DNA from: a virus
IMG/VR virus record: IMGVR_UViG_3300004457_000063
Location: 1 to 38,419 of that record
Reading direction: 5' to 3' (one strand)
DNA length: 38,419 bases
Shown: positions 13,279-24,994 of the stretch, piece after piece
How positions within the stretch are numbered: position 1 is the stretch's first letter
Layout of the letters: every line of letters starts with the position of its first letter
The notes under the pieces: generated by a model
Seen by the model: the letters and a program-made list of their open reading frames with translations, nothing else
The model's database searches: none
Told to the model about the DNA's origin: nothing
Translations under genes and position numbers: made by a program

Positions 13279-13466
13279 TATTTTGCTTTGTTTTCCAGTT
13301 TGCGAATTTTATCCAGGTGAGCCAGTTTTAATCCTAGCTGCTTATCCGATAGGGCCGATACATCAACACCTGGTAAATAGTATTGCACTGTGGTTTCAAT
13401 AAGGCCTATTATGTCCTCCTTGGCTCCCTTTTGTGCATCGGCTATCGCTTTAGAAATGCCGCCTTT
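13278..13466 (-). CDS. frameshifted C-terminal part of tail assembly chaperone
   Basis: An open frame of 62 codons in the -1 frame relative to the chaperone gene just upstream (13442-13909). It runs from the stop at 13467-13469 to the TAA that overlaps the tape measure ATG, and encodes a helical protein (AIADAQKGAKEDIIGLIETT ... LDKIRKLENKAK) with no ATG. Tail chaperones of long-tailed phages are classically made as a short and a frameshifted long form. Here the shift must occur between 13466 and the zero-frame stop; an A AAG tetramer at 13466-13463 is a candidate, but no canonical heptamer is present. It is real coding sequence in my reading; only the mechanism is uncertain. Confidence 0.65.
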   Translation of the reverse strand, partial: KGGISKAIADAQKGAKEDIIGLIETTVQYYLPGVDVSALSDKQLGLKLAHLDKIRKLENKAK

Positions 13467-13909
13467 TTACCGTCAACAATAGAGTTGAACTTGTTGGCAG
13501 CTGGCAGAAAGTATTCCTCTTCCTCCAGTATTTCGTCGTCCCCAGCAATCCAGCACTCACGCATACATGCTTCAAGAAACAAGTACAAGCCTTCGTCAGC
13601 CACCTTGGTACTAGCATAGCTCAAAATGTGGCGGTCAATCGGCTTAAACAGGGCAATTTTTTCAATTGTCTCCCCATCGTCTTCCATGATTGGCAAGTAC
13701 CACAAGCCCTTGTGTTCATTGCTCCACTTTTTTACCTGGGCTTCGCCCCACTTTTCGTATGCAAATACATTGCATTGTTCACGCAGTTTCTTTTCCGCAT
13801 CTTTAAGCTCTTGTTCACGAATCGCTTTGAGGGTTTTTTTAAAACCATCTTTAGGCTTACTAGATTTGGATTCGACTTTGATTTGTTCTTTTTTCTCGCT
13901 CAGGGACAT
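13442..13909 (-). CDS. tail assembly chaperone (short form)
   Basis: 155 aa, highly charged (KKEQIKVESKSSKPKDGFKK at the start), with a central domain FAYEKWGEAQVKKWSNEHKG and a helical region CMRECWIAGDDEILEEEEYF. Position between the tail tube and tape measure genes identifies it as the first tail-assembly chaperone. It ends at TAG 13442; a -1 frameshift would extend it by up to 60 residues to 13278. Together the two forms bind the tape measure and recruit tube subunits. Confidence 0.75.
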   Translation of the reverse strand: MSLSEKKEQIKVESKSSKPKDGFKKTLKAIREQELKDAEKKLREQCNVFAYEKWGEAQVKKWSNEHKGLWYLPIMEDDGETIEKIALFKPIDRHILSYASTKVADEGLYLFLEACMRECWIAGDDEILEEEEYFLPAANKFNSIVDGKKAAFLKR

Positions 13910-22430: not shown

Positions 22431-23813
22431 ATGGCAAAGATCAAAAAAGGCAATACTACCGTTACCCGTGGGGATACCGGAAAGCAACTTGTAATAAACG
22501 AGCTACATGTACAAAGTGCCGACCGCACCAAAAAAGACGTAGGCGATTTTATCCTAGCGGTGCAGCATGCCGAAATCACACACAACCCAAACCGTGTGGC
22601 CCTGTTCAACGTCTACGACAATATTGCCATAGACGGTTTCCTATCCGGTATTATCAAAAAGCGCACTGATGCCGTTTGCAACAAAACCATTATCTACAAA
22701 GATAAGGCAGGCAAAAAGGTGGACGCCTTCGACGATGTTATCGAAGGCGAAACCTTCCAGAAGGTAGTGCGTGAACTTATGAACTCCCAGTTTGATGGCA
22801 TTTCCGGAATGGAATTCATACCAGGTTCGGAGTTTGTTTTCGAAGAAATCCCCAAACGGCACATACGGCCAGAAACGGGACTTATCGTCTTGGAGCAGTA
22901 TGGGGAGCAAGGATACGAGTACGACAAATTGCCAAACGTGTGGGTAATTGCCGACAAACATGATCTGGGTCTCAAATATGTTTGCGCTCCTTATTCAATC
23001 TGGAAGCGTGGCAACATCGCCGACTGGGCACAGTATATCGAAATTTACGGCCAGCCTGTAATGATTACCCGCTACGAAGGATACGACGAAGCGGGCAAGC
23101 TGGCAGCTCACCAGTTGGTACAAAATGCCGGATCCAGTCTTCGTTTGGCATTGCCAAAAGAATTGAGCTTTGAAATACTCGACGGCAAAGCCAACAGCAA
23201 CGGCAACGGTGCACTTCAGGATACCTTTCGCAAGGCCATGAACGAAGAAATGGCCATTCACATCCTGGGCAATACCGAAACCACCAGTAGCTCCAGCAGC
23301 TCCGGTTATGCACAGGCCAAAGAACATGGAAAGCAGCAACTGGATATCACAAAATCTGATATCAAGTTTGTGCAAGCCAAGCTTAACAACAAAAAGTTTA
23401 TCGAAATTCTTAAGAGCTACGGATTCCCGATAGTGGAGGGTGGTAAGTTTGAGTTTGAAAAAGAGCTGGATCTGGAAGAGCTTAAAAACCGTGCGGAGAT
23501 TGACGAAAAGATGCAAGCTACTGGCCTACCGATCGACGACGATTACAAGTACAGCACTTACGGAATTCCCAAGCCAGCCAACTACGACCAGCTGAAAAAG
23601 GAAAAGGAAGCGCAAAATAATCCGGCACCAGCTACAGGAGATCCGCAGCCAGGCGACCCCGCACCCGATCCCAAAGCCAAAGATCCGGTACCAGGTAAAA
23701 AAGATCCCAAAGCCAAAGATCCAGCAAAAAAGCCTCCAGTTAAAAAGCTCAGTTTGCGGTACCAGATCCTTGCAGCCCTGGCAGATTTTTTCGACCCAGC
23801 CCGCTTAAAGTAG
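22431..23813 (+). CDS. portal protein (Mu gp29-like, DUF935)
   Basis: 460 aa. The core (residues of about 50-400) contains the portal-type segments VALFNVYDNIAIDGFLSGII, ISGMEFIPGSEFVFEEI, a WADWAQYIEIYGQPVMITRY-type stretch and a C-terminal helix. Residues of about 390-440 are a Pro/Lys/Asp-rich linker (PAPATGDPQPGDPAPDPKAK). It forms the dodecameric ring at the head vertex. Its last codons hold a perfect T TTT TTC slippery site followed by a stem-loop (23786-23832), so a fraction of ribosomes would continue into the MuF-like gene. Confidence 0.85.
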   Translation: MAKIKKGNTTVTRGDTGKQLVINELHVQSADRTKKDVGDFILAVQHAEITHNPNRVALFNVYDNIAIDGFLSGIIKKRTDAVCNKTIIYKDKAGKKVDAFDDVIEGETFQKVVRELMNSQFDGISGMEFIPGSEFVFEEIPKRHIRPETGLIVLEQYGEQGYEYDKLPNVWVIADKHDLGLKYVCAPYSIWKRGNIADWAQYIEIYGQPVMITRYEGYDEAGKLAAHQLVQNAGSSLRLALPKELSFEILDGKANSNGNGALQDTFRKAMNEEMAIHILGNTETTSSSSSSGYAQAKEHGKQQLDITKSDIKFVQAKLNNKKFIEILKSYGFPIVEGGKFEFEKELDLEELKNRAEIDEKMQATGLPIDDDYKYSTYGIPKPANYDQLKKEKEAQNNPAPATGDPQPGDPAPDPKAKDPVPGKKDPKAKDPAKKPPVKKLSLRYQILAALADFFDPARLK

Positions 23814-23832
23814 AACGTAAGTTAAGCGGGCT
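23786..23832 (+). promoter_or_regulatory. -1 programmed frameshift signal, portal to MuF-like
   Basis: Heptamer T TTT TTC at 23786-23792 is in the portal reading frame (GAT TTT TTC). A spacer of 5 nt (23793-23797) follows, then an 11-bp perfect stem, AGCCCGCTTAA (23798-23808) with TTAAGCGGGCT (23822-23832), and a 13-nt loop that contains the portal stop TAG. After a -1 slip the frame stays open straight into the MuF-like protein. The heptamer, spacer and stem correspond to the classical arrangement seen in retroviral and phage frameshift sites. Confidence 0.75.
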
Positions 23833-23866
23833 TTCAGGCCTTCCTATTGCCGACATCGGCACACAG

Positions 23867-24994
23867 TTGCAAACCCTTTACGGATCTTGCTGCGATCACC
23901 ATTTGCCCAATTTAAGCGCATTTTCTCCAGACGATTATGCCACCGCATTGGCCGCCATGGTGGAGCAGGTTTGGGCAGACAAAGGGGTAACTGCTGGCAC
24001 CATCAATCCGGAGGTTACCAGCCTCATGGCCGAGCGCCTGTTTAGTGGGACACAGCAGGGCTTTGGAGGCACGATCGTAGGCCTCGACTATACTACGCCC
24101 GATTGGAACATGCTGGCCTCCCTGGAGCGCAATGTGTGGCAATTTGCCGCCGCCAAAAACTACCAACACCTACGAGAACTTAGCGCCGCTCTCCTGGACG
24201 AAAACGGAAACCTCCGGAGTAAAGCCGATTTCCTTGCATTGGTGGTAGATATCAACGACAGGCAAATGAAGCGTTACTTCGATGCCGAGTACGAGCTGGC
24301 AGTAGCCGGGGCACAAATGGCAGGCAAGTGGGTTGATATTGAGCGTAACAACTTCAAGCTACTGGAGTTTGATGCCGTGCTCGATGGGCAAACAACCGAC
24401 CTGTGCCGTGGCTTGGATGGTACCCGACTTCCACCCGATCACCCATTCTGGAATACCTACTATCCACCCAATCACTTCCGCTGTCGCTCCACAGTTCGCC
24501 AACTGAATTCCGGAGTGGTTACACCAGAAGGTAATATACCATCGAGTGAAATCCCGCCAATGTTCCGCACCAACTTAGGCAAGCAAGGCCTGGTATTTCC
24601 TCCTGGGCATCCGATTTACGATGGCATTCCAGAAGGCGTGCAGGATAATGCCATGCGGGCCATGCGCAAGGAGCTCTATAATACCGCTCGTGAGCGCCTC
24701 AAAGGCAAAGAGGTGGTAGTACCGGGCTTTGGTACCGTAAGTTTCTCCAGCGATGGATTAAAGGAAATTTACAACCAGCCACATGGGGAGTACATGTTTA
24801 AAAACCAATTGGCTGTTATTTCCGACAAGCTGCTGGCCAATGCAACGGTGGTGGCCCAGGCTCCGGATGCTTCCGGACGGGCACTAAACTGGTATTACCT
24901 AAAAGTGGATGGATTGGAAAACAACTGGCTGGTGGTAAAAGAAATGAATGATGGCCGCAAAGTGATGTATTCAATTATCGACGCCATAAAATAA
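23867..24994 (+). CDS. MuF-like head morphogenesis protein (Mu gp30/F)
   Basis: 375 aa by the only near-upstream start, a TTG at 23867. No ATG or GTG exists between the portal region and this point, and the frame is open upstream through the frameshift site. The core has the Mu F pattern: a helical N-part (FAAAKNYQHLRELSAALLD), a conserved DGQTTDLCRGLDGTRLPPDH (Zn/Cys-His-like) motif, then YYPPNHFRCRSTVRQLNSGV, with the HFRCRSTV signature. The last 100 residues form a small alpha/beta domain of unknown function (the RLKGKEVVVPGFGTVSFSSD region). It is a minor capsid protein required for head assembly or DNA ejection, and is likely expressed mainly as a portal fusion. Confidence 0.8.
   Translation: MQTLYGSCCDHHLPNLSAFSPDDYATALAAMVEQVWADKGVTAGTINPEVTSLMAERLFSGTQQGFGGTIVGLDYTTPDWNMLASLERNVWQFAAAKNYQHLRELSAALLDENGNLRSKADFLALVVDINDRQMKRYFDAEYELAVAGAQMAGKWVDIERNNFKLLEFDAVLDGQTTDLCRGLDGTRLPPDHPFWNTYYPPNHFRCRSTVRQLNSGVVTPEGNIPSSEIPPMFRTNLGKQGLVFPPGHPIYDGIPEGVQDNAMRAMRKELYNTARERLKGKEVVVPGFGTVSFSSDGLKEIYNQPHGEYMFKNQLAVISDKLLANATVVAQAPDASGRALNWYYLKVDGLENNWLVVKEMNDGRKVMYSIIDAIK

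What the first reader, a model, noticed from the sequence alone, without database searches (positions are those of the whole stretch)
23786..23832. Programmed -1 frameshift fuses portal to the MuF-like protein
Seen: heptamer T TTT TTC in the portal frame (23786-23792), a 5-nt spacer, then an 11-bp perfect stem (23798-23808 with 23822-23832) whose loop holds the portal stop. The MuF-like frame is exactly -1 and open from the slippery site onward, and it has no ATG or GTG start (first is a TTG at 23867). Known: X XXY YYZ plus a stem 5-9 nt downstream is the classic -1 signal. Inference: the phage makes a minority portal-MuF fusion, as a built-in way to place a few MuF copies at the portal vertex. 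Portal-MuF fusion by frameshift is not something I know as described.
Basis: partly seen in the sequence, partly recalled or inferred. Interest (0 to 1): 0.9.

Follow-up and report, generated by a model that had tools for sequence, protein, structure and literature searches.

The report
Frameshift fuses phage portal to MuF
Mu-like viruses of Bacteroidota bacteria carry a conserved slippery site and RNA hairpin at the end of their DNA-portal gene, so that some ribosomes slip back one base and make a portal with an inner-capsid (MuF) protein, often toxin-like, attached; this would be a built-in way to ration and place that cargo.

Summary
T TTT TTC (23786-23792), a 5-nt spacer and an 11-bp perfect stem end the portal ORF. 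MuF lies in the -1 frame with no ATG until 23957. Among 206 distinct related junctions, 173 have MuF in the -1 frame. Of these, 166 carry an in-frame shifty heptamer (3.4 expected from matched windows in the same portal genes). A stem sits 3-8 nt downstream in 99% of 156 junctions (12-18% in controls), in 111 distinct sequences with compensatory changes. The MuF frame is under coding constraint upstream of its first start codon. Scanning IMG/VR for the DNA motif alone, 113 of 120 hits fell at this junction. In 27 relatives portal and MuF are one continuous ORF; 15 still keep T TTT TTC plus stem at the boundary (0.00 expected), so slipping would there release plain portal, as in dnaX. Both layouts predict portal plus portal-MuF. 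The relatives checked outside Bacteroidota mostly use ordinary overlapping starts. No description was found in the searchable literature. Not shown: the fusion protein itself, its efficiency, its place in the virion. Verdict: a canonical signal in a new, widespread place.

The parts
22431..23813 (+). Mu-type portal protein gene (460 aa, 51.4 kDa), zero frame
   Evidence: Pfam Portal_Mu PF06074 E 1.7e-57; ORF; mass
23786..23792 (+). slippery heptamer T TTT TTC in the portal frame
   Evidence: sequence; conserved in 113 of 173 -1 junctions, other shifty heptamers in most of the rest
23793..23797 (+). 5-nt spacer GACCC; the G directly after the heptamer is 99% conserved in TTTTTTC junctions
23798..23832 (+). 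stimulatory stem-loop, 11-bp perfect stem 23798-23808/23822-23832, 13-nt loop
   Evidence: conserved by position and by compensatory change in relatives
23811..23813 (+). portal stop codon TAG, inside the hairpin loop
23792..24994 (+). MuF-like protein in the -1 frame; with the portal gives an 854-aa, 95.1-kDa fusion (junction YQILAALADFF-RPSPLK); C-terminal LPD3 domain
   Evidence: Pfam Phage_Mu_F E 2e-8 and LPD3 E 7e-9; frame open 23744-24994; fusion computed; coding constraint upstream of the first start in relatives
23867..23869 (+). first TTG of the MuF frame, 54 nt past the portal stop; rival separate start
   Evidence: lies within predicted helix 21-36
23957..23959 (+). first ATG of the MuF frame, 144 nt past the portal stop; rival separate start
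   Evidence: residue 58, within predicted helix 48-65

Best explanation
A programmed -1 ribosomal frameshift. Most ribosomes read the portal ORF to its TAG and make plain portal (460 aa). A fraction pause at the hairpin with tRNA-Phe on UUU-UUC in the P and A sites, slip to UUU-UUU, and go on in the MuF frame, giving an 854-aa portal-MuF fusion. Shown here by sequence comparison: the heptamer in the ribosome's frame, fixed spacing, a stem kept by compensatory change, protein-coding selection on the MuF frame before any start codon, and repeated evolutionary switching between split and continuous forms with the signal kept. Inferred: the efficiency, that fused and plain subunits assemble in one portal ring, and that the C-terminal fusion (portal C-termini face the capsid interior in known portals) sets MuF and its effector-like tail inside the head at the exit channel, in limited copies.
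For: Frame: 173 of 179 two-ORF junctions have MuF in -1, the other 6 in +1, none in frame 0. Heptamer: 166 of 173, 3.4 expected; TTTTTTC register 113 in-frame, 7 and 1 in the other two; AAATTTT 26, 2 and 0. By protein cluster at 50% identity: 39 clusters with -1 junctions, 37 with a heptamer. Stem with score 14 or more: 99% of 156 junctions, 12% at other places in the same loci, 17.5% in dinucleotide shuffles; spacer 3-6 nt in nearly all; 111 distinct stems. Covariation: 27 sequences, all 162 cells paired, 27 cells changed on both sides, score 0.425 against 0.083 shuffled, 0/500. Coding constraint between portal stop and first ATG: substitutions 0.39/0.28/0.60 by codon position; median 58 codons to the first ATG. 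Motif-only scan: 113 of 120 hits at this junction, 105 with both domains recognised. Continuous ORFs: 15 of 27 keep TTTTTTC plus stem at the boundary (0.00 expected) and 22 of 27 any shifty heptamer (1.0 expected). The boundary FF is nnT TTT TTC in all of these 15, while neighbouring FF pairs mostly use other codons.
Against: No protein, ribosome-profiling or reporter data. Hankyphage-type loci (L017, L255, L256) also have an ATG for MuF close to the portal stop. A-tract junctions (7-10 A) often lack a strong stem, so some may use another mechanism. In the inverted continuous layout a typical -1 efficiency would make the fusion the major product, which fits poorly with a few copies at the portal. 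The 206 junctions are related sequences, not independent events.
Confidence: 0.93

Rival explanations
1. MuF is a separate gene started at TTG 23867 or ATG 23957, coupled to portal termination; heptamer and stem are incidental or serve the coupling.
For: Relatives outside Bacteroidota (Faecalibacterium Mushu, Thermus Riverbug, Rhodobacter RC1, Meiothermus MMP17) have MuF in +1 with annotated start overlaps of 8-47 nt; two Flavobacterium groups (L014, L015) have an ATG just past the portal stop; hankyphage-type loci have a near ATG as well.
Against: 157 of 168 junctions have at least 10 codons between the portal stop and the first ATG, 129 of 168 before any ATG/GTG/TTG, and these codons are under coding constraint; both starts in the window lie inside predicted helices; coupling does not need an in-frame X XXY YYZ with a stem at fixed distance.
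Confidence: 0.05
2. RNA polymerase slips on the T6 or A-tract, giving mixed mRNAs; the fusion arises by transcriptional slippage.
For: Some junctions have A7-A10 runs with weak or no stems (L012, L084, L209, L212, L230); A-runs ending in G occur at the boundary of some continuous ORFs.
Against: The main sites are T6C and AAATTTT, the latter no homopolymer; in-frame register 113:7:1 and 26:2:0 matters to ribosomes, not to polymerase; stem position and compensatory change downstream.
Confidence: 0.04
3. Sequencing error or a decayed fused gene: portal-MuF is one ORF broken by an indel.
For: Continuous portal-MuF ORFs exist (27 of 206).
Against: The same frame relation in 173 divergent junctions from many assemblies, with conserved MuF coding and a conserved stem.
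Confidence: 0.01
4. The hairpin is a transcription terminator or a processing site.
For: GC-rich hairpin at the end of a gene.
Against: No terminator-like site in 23600-24100; no Rfam family match reaching its cut-off; it lies 3-8 nt after an in-frame slip site and is also kept inside continuous ORFs.
Confidence: 0.01

Closest known systems
Phage tail assembly chaperone frameshift (lambda G/GT; SPP1 17.5/17.5* at UUUUUUC)
   Same: -1 slippage at X XXY YYZ, UUUUUUC in SPP1 (PMC6316719), giving a short structural-module protein and an extended form
   Different: Other genes and products: the chaperones are assembly factors (general knowledge); here the base product is the portal and the extension is a MuF domain with an effector-like tail
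Capsid and tail-tube frameshifts (phage A2 major head protein, SPP1 gp17.1/17.1*)
   Same: A structural protein and a C-terminally extended minor form incorporated in the particle (A2 paper listed in the references of PMC10885494; PMC6316719)
   Different: Those extend capsid or tail-tube subunits; here a complete separate protein family (MuF) is joined to the 12-fold portal
dnaX (tau/gamma) frameshift
   Same: In the continuous portal-MuF ORFs a -1 slip would give a shorter product from the same ORF (from general knowledge of dnaX)
   Different: Virus structural gene; the window itself has the opposite layout, where slipping gives the longer product; no strong upstream Shine-Dalgarno-like conservation seen
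MuF / SPP1 gp7 proteins and MuF toxins
   Same: MuF domain next to the portal gene; gp7 binds the portal, 1-2 copies per capsid; C-terminal toxin-type domains (PMC5576092, PMC11699363, PMC5512222)
   Different: There MuF is described as a separate protein that binds portal, or as a continuous domain fusion; joining by frameshift is not mentioned in the passages read

Membership tests
canonical bacterial-type -1 programmed ribosomal frameshift | X XXY YYZ heptamer in the zero frame inside the overlap of two ORFs in -1 relation | tested here: met
   window 23786-23792; 166 of 173 relatives
canonical bacterial-type -1 programmed ribosomal frameshift | stimulatory structure about 5-9 nt downstream | tested here: met
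   11-bp stem after 5 nt; stem in 99% of 156 junctions, spacer mostly 5-6 nt; covariation
canonical bacterial-type -1 programmed ribosomal frameshift | coding selection on the shifted frame from the slip site on | tested here: met
   codon-position substitution rates 0.39/0.28/0.60 before the first ATG
canonical bacterial-type -1 programmed ribosomal frameshift | measured frameshift product | not testable with these tools
   needs reporter, profiling or proteomics
Mu-type portal protein | Portal_Mu PF06074 domain | tested here: met
   E 1.7e-57
MuF / SPP1 gp7 family | Phage_Mu_F PF04233 / TIGR01641 domain directly downstream of portal | tested here: met
   PF04233 E 2e-8 above cut-off; TIGR01641 38.7 bits, just under its 39.65 cut-off
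MuF toxins | C-terminal toxin domain | tested here: inconclusive
   window has LPD3, function unknown; relatives have CdiA_C, PBECR, ART or glutamine deamidase domains
dnaX-like inverted frameshift (continuous-ORF relatives, not the window) | slip site and stem inside a continuous ORF with an early stop in -1 | tested here: met
   15 of 27 continuous ORFs with TTTTTTC plus stem; -1 stop after 5-29 codons, the stop distance itself being no more than chance would give

The most novel reading that the evidence does not exclude
A whole class of Bacteroidota Mu-like phages uses recoding to set how many of the portal's twelve subunits carry a covalently attached MuF domain with an effector tail: the portal ring itself would be the carrier and dose counter for an injected protein. 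Evolution has swapped which frame holds the fusion several times while keeping both products.
Probability: 0.55. Interest if true: 0.88.

Novelty: new variant of a known kind. Interest (0 to 1): 0.8.

Why it matters
Phage frameshifts described so far, as far as I know, serve mainly tail chaperones and capsid or tail subunits. A conserved one at the portal would mean that textbook portals of twelve identical subunits are mixed rings in a large group of gut, oral and environmental phages, and would explain how MuF and its toxin-type cargo reach the capsid interior in low number. It also corrects annotation: the MuF genes of Peternella_1 and TCUEAP3 are annotated from starts about 100 and 275 nt past the portal stop, which drops conserved N-terminal residues. 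Cultured phages make it directly testable.

Tried and rejected
Portal as single-protein query in genome contigs found nothing; alignments worked. Relatives in named genomes could not be drawn for a virus record. AlphaFold of MuF gave a usable helical core (mean pLDDT 74, best of five; the others 51-58) but no PDB fold match at E 0.001 or better. Rfam: no match above its cut-off. Terminator reading rejected. Sequencing-error reading rejected by conservation. PRFect (PMC10885494) only lists VIP2/MuF-like genes as possible frameshift fusions among its unjoined predictions; the halovirus, SPP1, Pseudomonas Mu-like, P. gingivalis phage and North Sea flavophage papers do not report a portal-MuF frameshift in the passages found.

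Full report
What is there. The window is a Mu-like transposable myophage: transposase and B-like ATPase, tail sheath, tape measure and major head protein are recognised. On the plus strand the order is terminase, gp36-type adaptor, Mu-type portal, MuF, tail-completion protein. The portal ORF (22431-23813) ends ...GAT TTT TTC GAC CCA GCC CGC TTA AAG TAG. T TTT TTC is at 23786-23792; 5 nt later an 11-bp perfect stem (23798-23808 with 23822-23832) encloses the stop in its loop. The MuF frame is -1, open from 23744 to 24994, with its first TTG at 23867 and first ATG at 23957. Slipping gives an 854-aa, 95.1-kDa fusion with the junction LADFF-RPSPLK. The folding energy of the hairpin alone is only moderately unusual (z -2.3).

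Relatives. Portal and MuF profiles were used to collect 255 loci from IMG/VR, GTDB genomes and annotated phages. Of these, 240 hold both genes side by side, and 206 junctions differ in sequence: 173 two-ORF in -1, 27 continuous in one ORF, 6 two-ORF in +1 and none in frame 0. Nearly all named hosts are Bacteroidota, from Bacteroidales, Flavobacteriales, Chitinophagales, Cytophagales, Saprospirales and Sphingobacteriia.

Heptamer. In the -1 overlaps an in-frame heptamer from a set of six shifty sequences occurs in 166 of 173; windows of the same length inside the same portal ORFs predict 3.4. T TTT TTC occurs in 113, with 0.19 expected. Register is 113:7:1 for TTTTTTC and 26:2:0 for AAATTTT; in the portal bodies neither shows that excess. 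The base after TTTTTTC is G in 99%. Relatedness is a caveat: at 50% identity the -1 junctions fall into 39 clusters, 37 with a heptamer.

Stem. A perfect helix beginning 3-8 nt after the heptamer with score 14 or more is present in 99% of 156 junctions with T-containing sites, against 12% at four other places in the same loci and 17.5% after dinucleotide-preserving shuffles; there are 111 distinct stems. In 27 ungapped examples, picked because they have a 6-nt loop, all six pairs form in every sequence, and the two variable pairs take GC, CG, AU and UA forms with 27 double changes; covariation is 0.425 against 0.083 shuffled, and sliding the partner destroys it.

Coding. The first ATG of the MuF frame lies a median 58 codons past the portal stop. 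In the stretch before it, substitutions by codon position are 0.39, 0.28 and 0.60, the pattern of translated protein; restricting to the stretch before any ATG/GTG/TTG gives 0.35, 0.26 and 0.57. In the AlphaFold model of the window's MuF, both candidate starts fall within helices.

Motif-only test. In 105 the site joins portal in frame 0 and MuF in -1; in 6 more only portal and in 2 only MuF was recognised, several of these on short or cut stretches; 7 are elsewhere.

The swapped layout. In 27 junctions portal and MuF are one ORF, for example the 852-aa protein annotated 'portal' in Porphyromonas gingivalis phages. Fifteen keep TTTTTTC plus stem at the boundary (0.00 expected) and 22 keep some shifty heptamer (1.0 expected). 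All four P. gingivalis phages read have it. In the fifteen the boundary Phe-Phe is nnT TTT TTC, whereas nearby Phe-Phe pairs mostly use other codons. There a -1 slip meets a stop within about 5-29 codons and would yield plain portal. On a FastTree tree of MuF cores the fewest changes between split and continuous is 13, and between the T-type split and T-type continuous forms 4. Both layouts lead to portal and portal-MuF; I take this as the best evidence that both products are wanted. The ratio need not be the same in the two layouts.

Boundary of the phenomenon. Four relatives outside Bacteroidota have MuF in +1 with annotated overlapping starts and no signal (Mushu, Riverbug, RC1, MMP17); Fusobacterium phage phiFN37 has a continuous form. 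Two Flavobacterium phage groups have an ATG just past the portal stop. Hankyphage-type Bacteroides phages have both the signal and a near ATG. Some junctions use A7-A10 tracts with weak or no stem, where polymerase slippage is a fair rival.

Function. SPP1 gp7, the best-studied MuF protein, sits inside the capsid bound to the portal at 1-2 copies and helps infection start (PMC5576092, PMC6316719). Of 63 full MuF proteins from frameshift junctions, 27 match CdiA_C, 10 PBECR2, 8 LPD3, 3 PBECR3, and single ones an ADP-ribosyltransferase or a glutamine deamidase. The likely role is therefore to fix a rationed number of effector-bearing MuF domains to the portal ring on the inner side. That step is inference.

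Novelty. Phage -1 signals of this form are textbook, and MuF and portal domains in multidomain head proteins were noted (PMC5512222). In the open-access library, ten searches found no portal-MuF frameshift; subscription papers and preprints are not covered. I class it as a new variant of a known kind with high interest because of its breadth, its place in the portal, and its testability in cultured phages.

Noticed in passing
window 13442-13909 (minus strand) and its -1 continuation to about 13280: Tail-assembly-chaperone-like ORF next to the tape measure gene with a ~60-aa open -1 extension (KGGISKAIADAQKGAKEDIIGL...) but no clear X XXY YYZ site (only T AAA AAG): a possible second frameshift with an unusual slip site.
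   Followed up: no
L012 3444-3471, L084, L183, L207, L209, L212, L230: Portal-MuF junctions with A7-A10 runs and often weak or no stem, perhaps transcriptional slippage reaching the same -1 fusion.
   Followed up: partly
L017 4841-4889, L255/L256 2391-2439: Hankyphage-type Bacteroides phages carry the full frameshift signal and also an ATG near the portal stop, so MuF might be made both ways; MuF of L017 ends in a papain-fold glutamine deamidase domain.
   Followed up: partly
L012 3570 and L013 3744: Public annotations start MuF of Peternella_1 and TCUEAP3 at a GTG about 100 nt and an ATG about 275 nt past the portal stop, dropping conserved N-terminal residues.
   Followed up: yes
L214 4001: A Holosporaceae (Alphaproteobacteria) assembly carries the same TTTTTTC-type junction; either binning contamination or a real transfer.
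   Followed up: no
L210 junction: CTTTTTC in place of TTTTTTC, with a long GC stem (ccccgac...gtcgggg) right after the portal stop; no strict heptamer.
   Followed up: no
L202, L239 junctions: G GGA AAG as slip site followed by strong stems, a rare variant in the family.
   Followed up: no
L265 1794-4316: Fusobacterium phage phiFN37 also has a continuous 840-aa MuF protein with no separate portal annotated nearby; A-rich heptamers but no strong stem there.
   Followed up: partly
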